From positions 1 to 64,000 of the forward strand of contig NZ_JBCAUS010000002.1 of the NCBI RefSeq assembly GCF_038432375.1: 64,000 bases of DNA, read 5' to 3'. Numbering within the stretch: position 1 is the stretch's first letter; every line of letters starts with the position of its first letter. The DNA comes from Methanococcoides sp. LMO-2 (GTDB taxonomy: Archaea; Halobacteriota; Methanosarcinia; Methanosarcinales; Methanosarcinaceae). The notes under the pieces are model-generated. The model did not search any database. It saw only the letters and a program-made list of their open reading frames with translations, and was not told where the DNA came from. Shown here piece by piece: positions 5,035 through 58,755 of this stretch. The translations under genes and the position numbers were made by a program.

Positions 5035-5829
5035 TTATTTTAATGATGCTGTTGATGCTTCATCGTTAGCTTCAACTGCTGTTCCAGAGAGCTTATCATT
5101 CAGGTCACTTTCTGCATCATACTCCAGGTCATCTTCCATATCTTCTTCATCGATGTCGTCTAGGTCTTCGATGTATGTATAATCGTTTTCATTGGTGTAT
5201 GCAGATCCTGTGCTTCCAAGCAGGTTATAGGCCAGTGCTCCGGAAAGCTTTGCAAGGGCGTTCATGATGTGCAGTGAGACGAATCCCAGAAGCAGGCCAC
5301 CAAACATCAGCACAAGAGCTACTCCCATTGTTTCTACTTCAGCTTCTCCGAAGTTCACGTAACCGGTGTTGTAGATAAAAGGCATTGAGATCAATACCAG
5401 TGTGAAAATCAGGAGTATGAACGCGATTACCAGTGTGAATATTCCAAGCGGGAACTTTATGAACAGGAAAACAAGCCCTTTCCATGTTACAGGATTGAGG
5501 ATGTATCCTTTCAGCTTCTCCGTCATCTTCTGGTTTGATATCTTCCGTGGTTCCATTGGGGGTATGTCGATCCCGAGAAGCCAGATGGCAAGCTGTCTTT
5601 CAAAGGATGCCAGTTCCCACCATGCCACAAGCATCAATATCAGTATGGGAATTCCGATAAGGGTTATTGACAGGCTCAGTCCCATTGAAAGTCCTGTCAC
5701 GAGGAATATGAAATAAGCTGTTCCAAGTGGGAAAGAGAACAATAGGTATGTGAGGTTCAGGTAGGTCTGCTTACGTGTGACCACTCCAAAAAAGTCTCTT
5801 ATAATACTGCTTATTCCTCTTTCTTTCAT
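5035..5829 (-). CDS. Membrane protein with putative sensor domain
   Basis: The protein resembles the Pfam 'Sensor' membrane domain (PF13796), known from the membrane half of actinobacterial sensor kinases and from stand-alone archaeal proteins. It has four or five hydrophobic segments, with FGVVTRKQTYLNLTYLLFSF at the start followed by LGTAYFIFLVTGLSMGLSLS. The tail, about residues 215-264, is very acidic (YIEDLDDIDEEDMEDDLEYD) and probably cytoplasmic. There is no kinase domain, so any signalling output is unknown. It is followed on the other side by a second small membrane gene. Confidence 0.75.
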   Translation of the reverse strand: MKERGISSIIRDFFGVVTRKQTYLNLTYLLFSFPLGTAYFIFLVTGLSMGLSLSITLIGIPILILMLVAWWELASFERQLAIWLLGIDIPPMEPRKISNQKMTEKLKGYILNPVTWKGLVFLFIKFPLGIFTLVIAFILLIFTLVLISMPFIYNTGYVNFGEAEVETMGVALVLMFGGLLLGFVSLHIMNALAKLSGALAYNLLGSTGSAYTNENDYTYIEDLDDIDEEDMEDDLEYDAESDLNDKLSGTAVEANDEASTASLK

Positions 5830-6199: not shown

Positions 6200-7414
6200 T
6201 CAGTCATGACGGAGTGCATCCACCGGTTTCATCTTCGCGGCTTTGTTTGCAGGGTATGCACCTGCTATCAGGCCTACAACAATGGAAACCACAAAACCTG
6301 CGAATATCTTCCCTGCAGGCAGGACCACTGGCAGGTTCATGAAGGTCGCAGCAGCATAGGCTCCACCACATCCGAGGATCATACCAAGAACCCCTCCAAG
6401 GGTTCCCACAACAGCAGATTCCACAATGAACATAGTCAGCACATCATAATTGGAGTAACCGATAGCTTTCATCAACCCGATCTCGGACGTACGTTCAGTC
6501 ACTGTCACAAGCATGATGTTCATGATACCAATGGAACCAACTACCAGTGAGATCAGTGCAACTGCTGTAAGCAGTGCAGTAAGGGCATCTGAAAGGCTTC
6601 CTGCTTCTTCGAGCAACTCCTGCTGGTCCACTATGAAGTATGGCTTGACATCATCCTTTTCCATGTCTCGGGATGATATTCCCAGATATCTCCCCAGCCG
6701 GGTGTCTATCTCATCCGAAGTTTCTGTTACGGTATCAATGGATTCGGCTTCTGCAAATATTCCGGAATAATCCTCCACATTGAGGATCTCGTTCATGGTG
6801 GTGATCGGTATGAATATGCGGTTGTCCGGATTCATTCCTGATGAAATGAAGCTAGCTTCGGACTTTTCCACTATACCCTTTACCTGAAATGTCTGAGTGA
6901 TGACCTCTCCATCACGTGTCCTGAAGGTAATGTCAATTGAATTCTTGTTTGCAAGGGTACGGTCAAAGGTATCTCCTGATATTTCGCTACCAATAACAGC
7001 AACGTACTGATCATTATCTTTAAGGAAATTACCTTCACTGAGCTGGAGATTGGCGACCTCATCATAGTCGCCTGTAACTCCCATGATAGTAACCCTTCTC
7101 GAGTCCGACATGTATGTCACCTCAGCAACCTGCTCATTGAGTGGTGAAGCTCTTACAATTCCGGGTGTGTTCCTGACAACTTCCAGTTCATTATCGAACA
7201 GGATATTTGGTTCATTTGTTCCGACATATATGAAGTTCGAGCCGATCGTACCTATCTCTTCGTCAAAGTACTGGTTAAAGCTTGCACCGATGGCAACATT
7301 TGCTATCACGGCAGCTACTCCTATTACGATACCAAGGGTTGTCAGGGTGGAACGAAGCTTTGAGCTGAAGATGCTTCCTGTTGCGATCTCAAGTGATTGC
7401 CTGAGGTTGACCAT
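6200..7414 (-). CDS. MacB/FtsX-type ABC transporter permease
   Basis: The N-terminus (LRSTLTTLGIVIGVAAVIA) is the first membrane helix of MacB_PCD proteins. A roughly 230-residue extracytoplasmic domain follows, then three C-terminal FtsX helices with the conserved VTERTSEIGLMKAIGYSNYD coupling region and ALRHD ending. Such permeases work with a LolD-like ATPase to move or release lipoproteins, peptides or drugs. The upstream gene's TAA overlaps an ATG at 7421, but AGGAG is only two bases from it. The ATG at 7414 has an eight-base spacing to the same AGGAG and is preferred. It is third in the operon after the ATPase and a secreted accessory protein. Confidence 0.9.
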   Translation of the reverse strand: MVNLRQSLEIATGSIFSSKLRSTLTTLGIVIGVAAVIANVAIGASFNQYFDEEIGTIGSNFIYVGTNEPNILFDNELEVVRNTPGIVRASPLNEQVAEVTYMSDSRRVTIMGVTGDYDEVANLQLSEGNFLKDNDQYVAVIGSEISGDTFDRTLANKNSIDITFRTRDGEVITQTFQVKGIVEKSEASFISSGMNPDNRIFIPITTMNEILNVEDYSGIFAEAESIDTVTETSDEIDTRLGRYLGISSRDMEKDDVKPYFIVDQQELLEEAGSLSDALTALLTAVALISLVVGSIGIMNIMLVTVTERTSEIGLMKAIGYSNYDVLTMFIVESAVVGTLGGVLGMILGCGGAYAAATFMNLPVVLPAGKIFAGFVVSIVVGLIAGAYPANKAAKMKPVDALRHD

Positions 7415-54814: not shown

Positions 54815-54825
54815 CCTCCTGATAG
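54815..54825. repeat. Target-site duplication, left copy
   Basis: CCTCCTGATAG is identical to 58745-58755 on the other side of the element. Because the inverted repeat could begin one base earlier, the duplication is 9, 10 or 11 bases. It is the expected footprint of a transposition event. Confidence 0.8.
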
Positions 54826-54843
54826 GGCTTGCCCATAAAGTCC
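54826..54843 (+). repeat. Left terminal inverted repeat
   Basis: GGCTTGCCCATAAAGTCC, perfect complement of 58727-58744. The internal part (CTTGCCCATAAAGT) resembles the iteron unit in reverse orientation. Confidence 0.85.
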
Positions 54844-54844
54844 C

Positions 54845-54899
54845 TTACTTTGTGGTCAACTACCTTACTTTATAGTCAAGTTGCCTACATTGTGGTCAA
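54845..54899 (+). repeat. Left iteron array, three units of 20 bp
   Basis: TTACTTTGTGGTCAA, TTACTTTATAGTCAA and CTACATTGTGGTCAA end at 54859, 54879 and 54899, an exact 20-base period (two helical turns). They have the same orientation as the right array. Likely binding sites for a transposase or regulator; too short and too similar in unit structure to be CRISPR. Confidence 0.75.
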
Positions 54900-54983
54900 A
54901 TCGCATGTCGGTAAGCTATTTCCGACTATTAAACGGACAGAAAATCATTACTTGGTTGTAAATGTGCGATATTAAAATTTCAT

Positions 54984-55049
54984 CAATATTGCTGCTTTGT
55001 CCGAAAAATAGGGTATTTATCGGACAACCGCACGAATTTTCGGACAAAA
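54984..55049 (-). repeat. 3' module, copy C1
   Basis: Located 48 bases after the stop of the 196-residue gene. It aligns with 55967-56031, about 86 percent identical by hand. It contains TTTGTCCGAAAAATA, a TCGGACAA and ATTTTCGGACAAAA, so it is partly self-complementary (TTTGTCCGAAAA with TTTTCGGACAAA) and could form a hairpin that ends transcription. Confidence 0.75.
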
Positions 55050-55097
55050 TTATGAATATTCGGACAAAGCGTGATATTGAGGGCAAGTTCCAAGGTA

Positions 55098-55688
55098 TCA
55101 AAAAGGTGGTATGGGAGATTCCCATTCTTCACAATCTAAAATGACGTAATATTCAGGAGATTCCAATCTTGGTACTTCCTCTTCTGGAATCGGGGATGGG
55201 AAACTAATGTGAACTACAGCCACATTGCTTTTGTTATACTGAAATATATACTTTAAATTGGCTTTATACACCAATGATTCATTTTCCTTGGAAACGCAAA
55301 TATCCCAGGTCGGATCCACCAATGAAGCTGATAGATATTCATCATCAATCACCCTACCGTTTTCCGATAACTCTATCAGTACCTCTTCATTTATCCCATC
55401 GATATGTTTTACCGTGAGTTCATGGTCATCGGAAAGCTTGATAACATCCCCATTTCGTAAAGAATATGTGGCACCAAAACAATCCCCAACCACGATACCA
55501 CGCTCGGATAAATTTTCATCCACGAGTTCTTCTCCCATCTGCTCATCTATGTGGACCTCATCCATGGTTTCTCCCGTGTCATTTTCAACACCATCTTCAG
55601 GAAAAACGTGTATTTGGGTAGAGATTACTACCAATAACAAAACCACAATCAAACAAACCAATACAACTTGCTTAATTCTCATTTGCAT
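55098..55688 (-). CDS. Secreted or membrane-anchored protein with S-layer-like segment
   Basis: An N-terminal hydrophobic helix (LVCLIVVLLLVVIST) acts as signal or anchor. An acidic linker is followed by about 130 residues containing GDVIKLSDDHELTVKHIDGI and VLIELSENGRVIDDEYLSASL. That spacing recalls the beta-strands of methanosarcinal S-layer (DUF1608) domains, but this is only a pattern likeness. Translation starts MQMRIK, the same MQM start as the neighbouring NosD-like gene. The start codon and GGGGAG lie inside or next to the shared 5' module. First cassette of the element. Confidence 0.75.
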   Translation of the reverse strand: MQMRIKQVVLVCLIVVLLLVVISTQIHVFPEDGVENDTGETMDEVHIDEQMGEELVDENLSERGIVVGDCFGATYSLRNGDVIKLSDDHELTVKHIDGINEEVLIELSENGRVIDDEYLSASLVDPTWDICVSKENESLVYKANLKYIFQYNKSNVAVVHISFPSPIPEEEVPRLESPEYYVILDCEEWESPIPPF

Positions 55689-55928
55689 CTATAACAACTC
55701 CCCAATATTGACAATATATTTTAGTTGGAAGTATATGAATACATCGGACAAATATGTTAACTGTGTGAGTATAGATGTTGAACCAATAGCGCATTTGCTT
55801 AAAAAATGTAGACTATAAGAGTGGGAGCTAACGGATCTTTGTCAACTGGATATGATTCTGGTTTGGTGATCCCCATGGGAAAACATCAACAACTTTGCAT
55901 CTATTTGAATCATTTTTCGGTCAAAAAT
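55680..55928 (-). repeat. 5' module, copy A (promoter and leader)
   Basis: About 250 bases aligning with 57528-57777 at roughly 89 percent identity by hand count. It contains the ribosome site GGGGAG, a TATA-like TAAAATATA, and the first codons (ATGCAAATG) of the gene it drives. The outer end carries TTTTTCGGTCAAAAAT. Confidence 0.85.
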
Positions 55929-55966
55929 ACGTTTTTTCGGACAAATTGATTTTTCGGACAAAGTTG

Positions 55967-56031
55967 CAATATTGCGCTTTGTCTGAAAAATAGAACACTT
56001 ATTGGACAACAGCATGAATTTTCGGACAAAA
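55967..56031 (-). repeat. 3' module, copy C2
   Basis: Counterpart of 54984-55049, located 72 bases after the stop of the NosD-like gene. Holds TTTGTCTGAAAAATA, TTGGACAA and ATTTTCGGACAAAA. Directly abuts the 5' module of the next cassette through further TTTTTCGGACAAA copies (55934-55962). Confidence 0.75.
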
Positions 56032-56102
56032 AGTAAAAAACGCCAATCTCCCTTGTTTTAACTGTCACCTTCTCTACAGTTTTTAATTAAGCCCGACACA
56101 CC

Positions 56103-57536
56103 TCATTCTCTTCTTATAAACATAAATGCGATTCCCAACATGATCATTGTCAGCACGGAACCGATAAAAGGCATCTCAGTAATTCCCCTATCGTTGATGT
56201 AGTTGATACCAATGTTATTTTCAGAAACATTTGCAACGAGACCTTTTCCATTGTCGAATAGATGATTTCCACTCACCGTGTTGTTATTGCTGGAATCTTC
56301 AAGGAACTTGCAATATTTGAAATCATGTGTTACGATATCGGTATTCACAGTTTTGTTATTGGATTGATTGAGATTGATACCGTGATAGTCGTTCAAGTTT
56401 GCAGTATTATTAATAATGGTGTTGAATGTGGAAGACTTCAGGTATATCCCATGTACTTTGTTCGAGTTTGCAGTGTTTCCCTCGATGCTGTTGTTGCTGG
56501 TTTCATTCAGATAGATGCCATATTGTTCGTTCGAATTTGCAGTATTATTGATCAATGAGTTATGGTCGCTGTAATAATACAACAGGATTCCGTGCTCATT
56601 ATTCGAAGCAGTGTTGTTTCCCAGATAATTGCCCCAGGAAAAATCATTAAGATAGATTCCATGTTCACCGTTTGAATTTGCTGTGTTGCCTTCCAGCACG
56701 TTGTAATGAGAAGAATCAAGGTAGATACCGTCACGTTTGTTGAAGTTTGCAGTGTTATTTATAAGTGTGAGATTTGAGGCTTCTCTAATGTAGATACCAT
56801 GTTCGTTGTCCGAAGCTCTGTTATTGATAAACGTATTGTCGTTGCTATAAAAGTGCAAAACAATAGCAATCCCGTTGTTCGAAATGTTGTTATTGTTAAA
56901 TGTGTTATTAGAGCCTCCATACATAAGGATGCCTCCTTCATTGTTCAGTACAGCATTATTACTCAGTTCGCTGTTGTTGGAACTCGACAAAAAGATGGCG
57001 ATACGGTTGCCTGACGCAGTATTATTACTCAGTACATTATTGCTGGATCCCTCCAAAAAGACACCTATGCTATTGTTGAACAATCGGTTGTTAGTAATAA
57101 TACAACCTTGGACCTCAGTATCCTTTACGGGAACAAATACAGGAACTCCATCAAGATATATTCCATAGGCAGGACTGTTTTTTTCAGTGCTATTGGCACC
57201 TGTTATGTTAAATCCGCTGATTGTTACGTTATTTGCAGTCACATGAAATACAGAATCATTTGAGTCTGCGGCTTGAACAGCCGTATCATCTGGATTTCCA
57301 GATTCCGCAACTATTGCTAACTCTTTGTTTACATCAACGTTTTCTGAATACTTCCCAGGATAAACAAAGATCGTATCACCATTATTTGCAGCGTCGATGG
57401 CTGCCTGTATGGTAGTATAATCTACAGTCCCACTATCGCCGACAATAATCGTATCTGCCGCAGCACTACCTGTGGCCATAGTCAAAAAACCAATTGTCAT
57501 TGCAATGTAAAATATGTGACATGATTTCATTTGCAT
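56103..57536 (-). CDS. NosD-like right-handed beta-helix surface protein
   Basis: A signal peptide (FYIAMTIGFLTMATGSAAA) leads into VDYTTIQAAIDAANNGDTIFVYPGKY, the usual cap of NosD/pectate-lyase-like beta-helices. About twelve 23-residue coils follow, of the form NTASNNEHGILLYYYSDHNS. The C-terminal helix (FIGSVLTMIMLGIAFMFI) with RRE anchors it. Dozens of N-x-S/T sequons suggest heavy glycosylation. Such proteins are surface or carbohydrate-interacting in Methanosarcinales. Second cassette of the element; it shares the MQM start and 5' module with the 196-residue gene although the two proteins are otherwise unrelated. Confidence 0.88.
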   Translation of the reverse strand: MQMKSCHIFYIAMTIGFLTMATGSAAADTIIVGDSGTVDYTTIQAAIDAANNGDTIFVYPGKYSENVDVNKELAIVAESGNPDDTAVQAADSNDSVFHVTANNVTISGFNITGANSTEKNSPAYGIYLDGVPVFVPVKDTEVQGCIITNNRLFNNSIGVFLEGSSNNVLSNNTASGNRIAIFLSSSNNSELSNNAVLNNEGGILMYGGSNNTFNNNNISNNGIAIVLHFYSNDNTFINNRASDNEHGIYIREASNLTLINNTANFNKRDGIYLDSSHYNVLEGNTANSNGEHGIYLNDFSWGNYLGNNTASNNEHGILLYYYSDHNSLINNTANSNEQYGIYLNETSNNSIEGNTANSNKVHGIYLKSSTFNTIINNTANLNDYHGINLNQSNNKTVNTDIVTHDFKYCKFLEDSSNNNTVSGNHLFDNGKGLVANVSENNIGINYINDRGITEMPFIGSVLTMIMLGIAFMFIRRE

Positions 57537-57777
57537 CTATTACAACTCCCCAACATCGGCAATATATTTCAATTAGAAGTAGATAAATACATCGGGCAAA
57601 AATGTTAACTGTGTGAATATAGATGGTGAACCAATATCCGTATTTGCTTAAAAAATGTAGAATATAAGAGTGGGAGCTAACGGACCTTTGTCAACTGGCT
57701 GTGATCCTGGCTAGGTAATCTCCATGGGAAAACGTCAACAACTTTGCATCTATTTGAATCATTTTTCGGACAAAAAT
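57528..57777 (-). repeat. 5' module, copy B (promoter and leader)
   Basis: Aligns with 55680-55928 over its full length with one single-base gap and about 27 substitutions counted by eye. It overlaps the first codons of the NosD-like gene and ends in TTTTTCGGACAAAAAT. The remaining gap to 57970 is AT-rich and should contain the promoter of the plus-strand small genes. Confidence 0.85.
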
Positions 57778-57970
57778 GTGGATTTTCAGTCACGTCATAA
57801 AAACAGGGCTACAGCTGTTGCAATTTTCATTTATGAATATCAATATGCGGAGGATTTTCTACATTTAATGTAACGAAACATACCAATTATTTTTTATATT
57901 ACAGAATATAATTTTGCATATGTAAAGAAAAATCCATTTCAAAGAAGAAATTCCATCGTGGGAGTAATTA

Positions 57971-58147
57971 ATGAACATCAAAAATTTAGTAATTCCAATC
58001 ATAATATCTTCAGTAATAATCATTGCTACAACTGGAGTATTGTATTTTAAAGATGCATTAAAAATAATAATTGGTAGCCCATTGACGTTTCTGATTGAGA
58101 CTTTGGGATTATTTCTTCTGGCACTAGCTCCTATTATACATGGTTGA
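57971..58147 (+). CDS. Small hydrophobic protein (possible first part of a frameshifted gene)
   Basis: The 58-residue ORF has two membrane helices (LVIPIIISSVIIIATTGVLY and LIETLGLFLLALAPII) with GGGAG six bases before the ATG. Its TGA overlaps the TTG that opens the next frame (TTGA). Either these are two coupled small membrane proteins or one four-helix protein broken by a single-base change. No family is recognised. Confidence 0.55.
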   Translation: MNIKNLVIPIIISSVIIIATTGVLYFKDALKIIIGSPLTFLIETLGLFLLALAPIIHG

Positions 58148-58401
58148 TTACAAGGAATAAGATCGGATCCGTTATGATTGGAGTGATACCTGTTATCGGA
58201 TTTTACCTCTATTTCAATTTGAGTTCGATCATATCGGGAGACTTTACCAGTATGGATACTCTTGTTTATTTTGGAGTCCTTGCTATCCTTGGTGGTTTGG
58301 AAGGTTATTTTGCAGCAATAGAAAAAATAGAGTACAACCTTTTGGCAGTATGCTGTTTTCTGTTATGGGTAGTATTCTTTTTAAGAGGATTTATTGATTA
58401 A
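58144..58401 (+). CDS. Small hydrophobic protein overlapping the previous ORF
   Basis: The 85-residue frame opens at TTG 58144 and contains three membrane helices (IGVIPVIGFYLYFNL; LVYFGVLAILGGLEGYF; LLAVCCFLLWVVFFL). It lacks a convincing ribosome site of its own, which favours translational coupling or a frameshifted single gene. Unrecognised family. Confidence 0.5.
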   Translation: MITRNKIGSVMIGVIPVIGFYLYFNLSSIISGDFTSMDTLVYFGVLAILGGLEGYFAAIEKIEYNLLAVCCFLLWVVFFLRGFID

Positions 58402-58568
58402 ACCCAGAATTATGCTGTTTACCTAAAAATCCAGTCCTTAGATGGAGAGTATATACCTTCAAATGTGGCAATGATTTCCCAAGTTGAAATCCGTTTTAGA
58501 CTAATCCCTCATCCACCAAACTGGATTGATGTTGACAGGCAATGAAACCACTGAATAACAATAATAAC

Positions 58569-58608
58569 ATGAATTTTCGGTCAAAAATACGATTTTTTCG
58601 GACTAAAT
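58569..58608. repeat. Right-end remnant of cassette repeats
   Basis: CATGAATTTTCGGTCAAAAA followed by TACGATTTTTTCGGACT matches both the 3' module end (CATGAATTTTCGGACAAAA) and the junction at 55913-55944 (TTTTCGGTCAAAAATACG then TTTTTTCGGACAAA). This suggests that a third cassette boundary once lay here. Confidence 0.55.
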
Positions 58609-58651
58609 GAATAGTTCAATCCATAAACTGTTGCCGCACATATGACAGAGA

Positions 58652-58741
58652 GAATTTATAGTCAAAATTTGACTTTATGGTCAAACGTACTACTTTGTGG
58701 TCAAGTAGCGTAGTTTGTGGTCAAGAGGACTTTATGGGCAA
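58652..58741 (+). repeat. Right iteron array, four units running into the terminal repeat
   Basis: Units ending GTCAA at 58665, 58684, 58704 and 58724 (GAATTTATAGTCAA, GACTTTATGGTCAA, TACTTTGTGGTCAA, AGTTTGTGGTCAA), spaced 19-20 bases. The terminal repeat itself, GACTTTATGGGCAA, is a fifth related unit. Confidence 0.75.
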
Positions 58742-58755
58742 GCCCCTCCTGATAG
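58727..58755 (-). repeat. Right terminal inverted repeat plus right target duplication
   Basis: 58727-58744 is the exact complement of 54826-54843; 58745-58755 repeats CCTCCTGATAG from 54815-54825. Removing one duplication and everything between rejoins a sensible 150-200-base intergenic region between gatE and the next gene. Confidence 0.82.

What the first reader, a model, noticed from the sequence alone, without database searches (positions are those of the whole stretch)
54984..57777. Gene-cassette array: two unrelated surface genes between duplicated 5' and 3' modules
The 196-residue gene (55098-55688) and the NosD-like gene (56103-57536) share no visible homology beyond the first residues (MQM). 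Each is preceded by the same 250-base module (55680-55928 and 57528-57777, about 89 percent identical by hand) and followed by the same 65-base module (54984-55049 and 55967-56031, about 86 percent). So promoter, ribosome site, start and terminator are constant while the coding part is swapped. This is what a system for exchanging or collecting surface-protein genes behind a fixed expression frame would leave. A third boundary remnant at 58569-58608 suggests more cassettes have come and gone.
Basis: partly seen in the sequence, partly recalled or inferred. Interest (0 to 1): 0.85.

Follow-up and report, generated by a model that had tools for sequence, protein, structure and literature searches.

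The report
Nested transposon cassettes carrying surface-protein genes
In this methane-producing archaeon the two surface-protein genes sit inside nested jumping-DNA cassettes that have lost their own jumping enzyme; related cassettes in sister species carry mostly other secreted or membrane proteins, so a transposon family is moving surface genes between these archaea.

Summary
The repeats are real, but they are transposon ends plus a gene leader, not a generic expression frame. The genome is a Methanococcoides. The stretch 54825-58745 is one 3.9-kb element with terminal inverted repeats GGGCTTGCCCATAAAGTCC and a perfect 9-bp target duplication (CTCCTGATA). A sister species has the empty site. 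Nested inside, the 196-aa gene is its own 974-bp element (54993-55966), with a related repeat (CGCTTTGTCCGAAAAAT) and a perfect duplication CAATATTGC. Two relatives show its unfilled target. The '65-base module' is one end of this type. The '250-base module' is the other end plus the leader of a resident NosD-like gene. I delimited 30 such elements in Methanosarcinaceae: 23 have perfect and 6 near-perfect duplications, against 0 perfect in 868 mismatched control pairs. Three carry a SWIM/DDE transposase. Cassette cargo is mostly exported or membrane proteins (17 of 21 families; neighbouring genes 40 of 134). One 5.4-kb element is 99.98% identical at unrelated sites in two species whose core gene differs by 13%. 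The two genes are unrelated (S-layer domain; beta-helix). It works like bacterial mobile insertion cassettes: a new variant of a known kind. This genome retains no intact transposase of the type.

The parts
54816..54824 (.). target-site duplication of the outer (type A) element, CTCCTGATA
   Evidence: single copy at the empty site in G019
54825..54899 (+). outer element, 'inverted-motif' end: TIR GGGCTTGCCCATAAAGTCC, then motif copies at 54846, 54866, 54886 (20-bp steps)
54984..54992 (.). target-site duplication of the inner 196-aa cassette, CAATATTGC
   Evidence: unfilled target in L064 and L066
55098..55688 (-). cargo gene 1: 196 aa, N-terminal TM segment plus one S-layer (PF07752-type) domain, aa 73-160
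55689..55928 (-). leader/promoter region of NosD origin ('5' module')
55911..55966 (-). other type B end of the 196-aa cassette (CAACTTTGTCCGAAAAAT plus motifs)
55967..55975 (.). second copy of target-site duplication CAATATTGC
56103..57536 (-). cargo gene 2: 477-aa NosD-like beta-helix surface protein, C-terminal TM
57537..57777 (-). leader/promoter region of NosD ('5' module') with one remaining type B motif at 57760-57773
57971..58401 (+). probable decayed (frameshifted) small membrane-protein cargo gene in two open pieces, 57971-58146 and 58144-58401
   Evidence: weak similarity to L069 and L148 cargo, E about 2-4e-4
58569..58608 (-). remnant of a further type B end (two motifs)
58671..58745 (-). 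outer element, 'same-motif' end: motifs plus GGACTTTATGGGCAAGCCC
58746..58754 (.). second copy of target-site duplication CTCCTGATA

Best explanation
The block is a nest of non-autonomous cut-and-paste DNA transposons (mobile insertion cassettes). An outer type A element (54825-58745) inserted between gatE and a PEP-synthase-like gene. It already carried a NosD-like gene with its own leader, bounded on one side by a related type B end. A separate type B cassette carrying the leader plus a single-S-layer-domain gene then inserted next to that end. Both were probably mobilised in trans by SWIM-zinc-finger/DDE transposases, which recognise ends built of a ~10-bp terminal repeat plus a 14-bp motif repeated at 17/20/20-bp steps and make 9-bp target duplications. 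The leader comes from a resident chromosomal nosD-like gene captured by such ends. SHOWN by sequence: element boundaries, target duplications, empty sites, transposase-bearing full elements with the same ends, identical elements at different sites in two species, exported-protein bias of cargo. INFERRED: the actual transposition reaction, the binding role of the repeats, expression from the leader, and selection for surface variation as the reason for the cargo bias.
For: TIR plus perfect 9-bp duplications for both nested elements. Empty site of the outer element: one uninterrupted 390-bp match at 97% with a single CTCCTGATA in G019, and an 87% match across the site in G018. Unfilled target of the 196-aa cassette in two relatives' elements. 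30 elements: 23 perfect and 6 one-mismatch duplications, against 0 and 2 in 868 mismatched control pairs. Shared end geometry, motif starts at 5/22/42/62 on one end and 22/42/62 on the other, in most A and B elements. Transposase-bearing elements with perfect duplications: L097 type B 5.5 kb, L095 type B 5.9 kb containing leader + NosD + transposase + serpin, and a 12.4-kb type A element in G034. The 5369-bp element is 99.98% identical in G019 and G020 with unrelated flanks and different duplications, while their gatE orthologues are 86.9% identical. Resident NosD with the leader at one syntenic locus in G000, G020 and G024; no ends found at the G000 copy. Cargo 17 of 21 families exported/membrane vs 40 of 134 neighbouring genes, p about 1e-5.
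Against: No intact transposase of this type in this genome (99.9% complete), only one broken DDE_Tnp_1 fragment, so mobility here is past or depends on a donor. The leader-side end of the NosD cassette is decayed, so that cassette has no independent duplication. Elements were chosen by their ends, and some paired ends lack a duplication (L071; L135 was not recovered). The L005 site is not a clean empty site in relatives.
Confidence: 0.93

Rival explanations
1. Simple old tandem gene duplication in which one copy diverged beyond recognition.
For: Repeated upstream and downstream sequence around two adjacent same-strand genes.
Against: The coding regions belong to different families (S-layer domain vs beta-helix). 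The modules coincide with transposon ends and target duplications. The unfilled target exists in relatives. The order differs in the 5369-bp element.
Confidence: 0.03
2. A dedicated surface-antigen exchange system: a fixed leader/start behind which coding parts are swapped by recombination, integron- or phase-variation-like.
For: Leader 89-94% identical in front of unrelated genes, with the boundary at codon 3-4. Mosaic NosD 5' coding region. Strong exported-protein bias.
Against: The leader occurs only with NosD and the S-layer-domain gene; other cassettes use other upstream regions. No invertase, integrase or attC-like feature was seen among the cargo. Boundaries are DDE-type TIR/TSD. Selection looks purifying (196-aa gene dN/dS about 0.29).
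Confidence: 0.15
3. Homologous recombination (gene conversion) between NosD paralogues through the leader explains the shared modules, and the terminal repeats are passive hitch-hikers.
For: NosD bodies are mosaic: the first ~150 nt and the rest have different closest relatives. The leader is repeated in one genome.
Against: It does not explain the 9-bp duplications, empty sites, or identical elements at unrelated loci in two species. It may well add to the main explanation.
Confidence: 0.05

Closest known systems
Mobile insertion cassettes (MIC231 of Bacillus cereus, with IS231/IS4-family ends; Chen et al. 1999, De Palmenaer et al. 2004, cited in PMC2266710; term used in PMC3129680)
   Same: Terminal inverted repeats of an IS with cargo genes in place of the transposase; target duplications; presumed mobilisation in trans; modular relation to transposase-bearing versions.
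   Different: Archaeal; IS5/IS4-superfamily DDE transposase with a SWIM finger; ends with repeated 14-bp motifs in 20-bp steps and one asymmetric end of each kind; nesting; cargo mostly exported/membrane proteins.
Transporter IS (tIS) with passenger genes (PMC3129680)
   Same: The L095, L097 and 12.4-kb elements carry transposase plus passenger genes.
   Different: The window elements lack a transposase; passengers are surface proteins, serpin, and in one case PARIS plus type I R-M.
IS5 family (NCBIfam NF033579, transpos_IS5_2)
   Same: Best family match of all four transposases (E 1e-31 to 1e-38); Pfam DDE_Tnp_1. From memory only: the IS903 group has 9-bp duplications and a similar GGCTTTGTTGAATAAATC end.
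   Different: Scores 108-131 bits, below the curated 140-bit cut-off; extra N-terminal SWIM domain; 5-12 kb elements; repeated subterminal motifs.
MITEs
   Same: Short solo elements of the same ends with duplications, e.g. 99 bp at C2:460145-460243.
   Different: Most elements here carry genes.
Integron gene cassettes
   Same: Mobile single-gene units that can lie in arrays.
   Different: TIR/TSD-bounded, bring their own leader, insert at many sites; no integrase or attC seen.

Membership tests
Mobile insertion cassette (MIC) | Bounded by terminal inverted repeats of an IS/transposon family | tested here: met
Mobile insertion cassette (MIC) | Target-site duplication and empty site | tested here: met
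Mobile insertion cassette (MIC) | Cargo gene(s) and no transposase inside | tested here: met
   for the window elements
Mobile insertion cassette (MIC) | Transposase-bearing relatives with the same ends exist | tested here: met
   L097, L095 (type B) and the 12.4-kb G034 element (type A)
Mobile insertion cassette (MIC) | Trans-mobilisation shown by experiment | not testable with these tools
   needs a transposition assay
IS5 family | Transposase passes the curated NCBIfam cut-off | tested here: not met
   NF033579 108-131.5 bits vs cut-off 140; related, but not filed as a member
IS5 family | DDE_Tnp_1 catalytic domain | tested here: met
   PF01609 above cut-off
Integron cassette | attC recombination site and cognate tyrosine integrase | tested here: not met
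   No integrase ORF noticed in any delimited element and boundaries are TIR/TSD; attC was not searched with a dedicated model
Tandem duplication | Homologous coding regions in the two units | tested here: not met
Tn7-like element | TnsABC machinery and 5-bp duplication | tested here: not met
   9-bp duplications; single DDE_Tnp_1 transposase; no TnsABC noticed among the listed ORFs

The most novel reading that the evidence does not exclude
Methanosarcinaceae harbour a transposon superfamily, recognised by asymmetric ends with 20-bp-stepped motifs and SWIM/DDE transposases, whose cargo niche is the cell surface. Small transposase-less cassettes repeatedly capture, nest, recombine and exchange genes for exported and membrane proteins between species and genera, while the large autonomous members can carry defence systems. 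Together they act as a distributed surface-gene exchange network analogous in effect to integrons.
Probability: 0.35. Interest if true: 0.78.

Novelty: new variant of a known kind. Interest (0 to 1): 0.62.

Why it matters
Surface proteins, S-layer parts included, vary strongly among archaea, and the route of exchange is seldom visible. Here the vehicles, their boundaries, empty sites, a probable mobilising enzyme and a recent interspecies transfer can all be read from sequence. That makes the system directly testable, and it gives simple sequence marks (two ends, 9-bp duplications) for finding many unannotated cassettes. It also shows how a leader can come to sit before an unrelated gene.

Tried and rejected
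Tandem duplication: rejected (unrelated folds, target duplications). Shared terminator for the 3' module: rejected (solo copies with duplications occur away from surface genes, e.g. L016). RNA family in the leader: no Rfam match; consensus fold weak. The transposase left end in L079/L096 was first not found; extending upstream gave a 12.4-kb element with perfect duplication. L098 transposase: its ends resemble this design (TTTGCACAAAAA copies 20 bp apart) but were not delimited. Flank test for the L005 element gave no clean empty site, because G018 and G020 also carry a type A end there. Exact TIR hits in bacterial MAGs were not followed; they may be chance matches to 19 bp. Literature searches found no report of these elements in methanogens, but the library is open-access only and ISfinder was not available.

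Full report
SETTING. The window is contig C2:1-64000 of a 2.31-Mb genome. Relatives in the same genus include a contig matching Methanococcoides seepicolus by length (15,145 bp), so the host is a Methanococcoides species (Methanosarcinaceae). Genera of other G-handles were inferred the same way: G036 is Methanohalophilus sp. RSK and G063 is Methanolobus vulcani B1d.

OBSERVATION. The two modules, their identities and the remnant are as described. The 196-aa and 477-aa proteins are unrelated. The first carries one S-layer domain (PF07752 E 1.8e-7; TIGR01567 weak; PDB 3u2g S-layer protein MA0829 E 1e-6). The second is a NosD/right-handed beta-helix protein.

OUTER ELEMENT. Exact inverted repeats GGGCTTGCCCATAAAGTCC lie at 54825-54843 and 58727-58745 (none expected in shuffles), with CTCCTGATA directly outside both. 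Joined flanks match sister genome G019 without interruption over 390 bp at 97%, and G018 at 87%. The G019 alignment shows one copy of CTCCTGATA. So a 3921-bp element inserted here after the split from G019, whose gatE is 95% identical.

INNER ELEMENT. The 196-aa gene lies in 54993-55966, bounded by a second kind of end (TGCTTTGTCCGAAAAAT / CAACTTTGTCCGAAAAAT) and a perfect duplication CAATATTGC. The same backbone without this insert is seen in L064 (...GGACAAAGTG-GCAATATTG-ATGAAATTTTAATA) and in L066 (GTAATATTG). The module at 55967-56031 is the duplication plus the matching end of the NosD cassette.

THE LEADER. The 240 bp upstream of both genes also precedes NosD genes in L005, L064, L066 (part) and L095. 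At one syntenic place, between a CCA-type nucleotidyltransferase-like gene and a ferritin gene, three genomes (G000, G020, G024) carry NosD with the same leader; the motif scan of the G000 copy found no transposon ends there. The leader is therefore NosD's own. Among mobile copies it is 89-99% identical (L066, with only 110 bp, is lower) whether the gene is NosD or the S-layer-domain gene, against 73-84% to the resident copies. Coding identity starts or ends at codon 3-4, so one leader/coding exchange happened in the mobile lineage. NosD itself is mosaic.

THE FAMILY. Using the two ends as probes, type A TIRs occur in 21 of 112 family genomes. Type B TIRs occur in 77 of 112 at two mismatches, with substantial chance background in Methanosarcina as judged by the reversed-pattern control. 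I delimited 30 elements. Twenty-three have perfect and six one-mismatch 9-bp duplications; 868 mismatched flank pairs gave 0 and 2. Selection caveat: several elements were accepted because a duplication was found, and at least two end pairs (L071, L135) show none. Most elements have one end with 14-bp motifs starting at 5, 22, 42, 62 in the orientation of the TIR, and the other with motifs at 22, 42, 62 in the opposite orientation, for both A and B. A and B are thus related designs.

TRANSPOSASE. Three elements with perfect duplications carry a ~480-540-aa protein with a DDE_Tnp_1 domain and, in two, a detectable SWIM finger. They are L097 (type B, 5456 bp, TCAAAACTA), L095 (type B, 5905 bp, CATTTTTTC; leader + NosD, zinc-ribbon ORF, transposase, serpin lipoprotein in two pieces) and a type A element in G034 (12,402 bp, TCAGGATTA). 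NCBIfam relates them to IS5_2 below its cut-off. This genome has no such gene and only a 99-aa broken DDE_Tnp_1 piece. Its cassettes are therefore stranded unless a donor transposase arrives.

CARGO. After removing transposase and zinc-ribbon ORFs and the 12.4-kb element, cargo falls into 21 families, 17 with TM/signal segments and 4 soluble. Neighbouring genes of 150-600 aa are 40 vs 94 (Fisher p about 1e-5). The predictor is a simple hydropathy window and cargo genes are small, so the strength is approximate. Cargo families cross end types and genera. The 148-aa secreted protein is 92.5% identical between a type A element in Methanococcoides G018 and a type B element in Methanohalophilus G030. 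A proteinase-inhibitor-like lipoprotein family (my reading; no Pfam family passed its cut-off) and serpins also recur.

TRANSFER. The 5369-bp element (S-layer-domain gene with a stop, 167-aa membrane protein, two NosD genes) is identical at 5368 of 5369 positions in G019 and G020, with no similarity of flanks and different perfect duplications, while gatE orthologues are 86.9% identical. This needs recent transfer between species. The vehicle is unknown.

MECHANISM. Shown: boundaries, duplications, empty sites, family membership of ends, transposase-bearing siblings. Inferred: trans-mobilisation, motif binding, leader activity, and surface variation under selection. Pairwise dN/dS (0.19-0.46) indicates overall purifying selection, not diversifying selection on whole genes.

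COMPARISON. The closest known kind is the mobile insertion cassette, described with IS231 in Bacillus (references in PMC2266710; term used in PMC3129680). What differs is the host, the transposase type, the stepped-motif ends, the nesting and the cargo bias. Verdict: new variant of a known kind.

Noticed in passing
G034:C1:1130056-1142457 (loci L150 and L096), Methanohalophilus: 12.4-kb type A transposon with perfect duplication TCAGGATTA carrying a PARIS-like pair (AriA E 7e-30, AriB E 4e-19), type I R-M genes HsdS and HsdM, and the SWIM/DDE transposase: a transposon-borne defence set.
   Followed up: partly
window 55771-55865 and L039, L041, L042, L037, L040 (about 1480-1600 each): The ~95-bp core of the NosD leader recurs at 75-79% identity in unrelated intergenic places of three Methanococcoides genomes; no Rfam family and only a weak consensus fold. 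Possibly a shared regulatory element or small RNA.
   Followed up: partly
L005 4909-7885 (G000:C6:356908-359884): A second TIR-bounded NosD element in the same genome with perfect duplication TAAAAATTA contains a third, internal type A end at 7029, as if two elements fused or a one-ended event occurred. G018 and G020 also have a type A end at the orthologous site.
   Followed up: partly
L015 5561-7199 (G000:C2:341560-343198): A type B cassette in this genome with perfect duplication TCTCTCTCA carrying a 311-aa lipoprotein and a 172-aa secreted protein.
   Followed up: yes
L095 7378-8658 (G018:C5) and L133 2153-3403 (G021): Serpin lipoproteins as transposon cargo in methanogens; the L095 copy is split in two frames.
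   Followed up: no
L070 2861-4998 (Methanohalophilus sp. RSK): Type A element with a UvrA-like fragment, a DHFR-like gene and a MarR gene 86% identical to a chromosomal MarR of this genome: an example of capture of ordinary chromosomal genes (UvrA/DHFR named from sequence by eye).
   Followed up: no
L098 4250-6708 (G028): More distant SWIM/DDE transposase whose 3' flank has TTTGCACAAAAA copies about 20 bp apart, suggesting a third end type of the same design.
   Followed up: no
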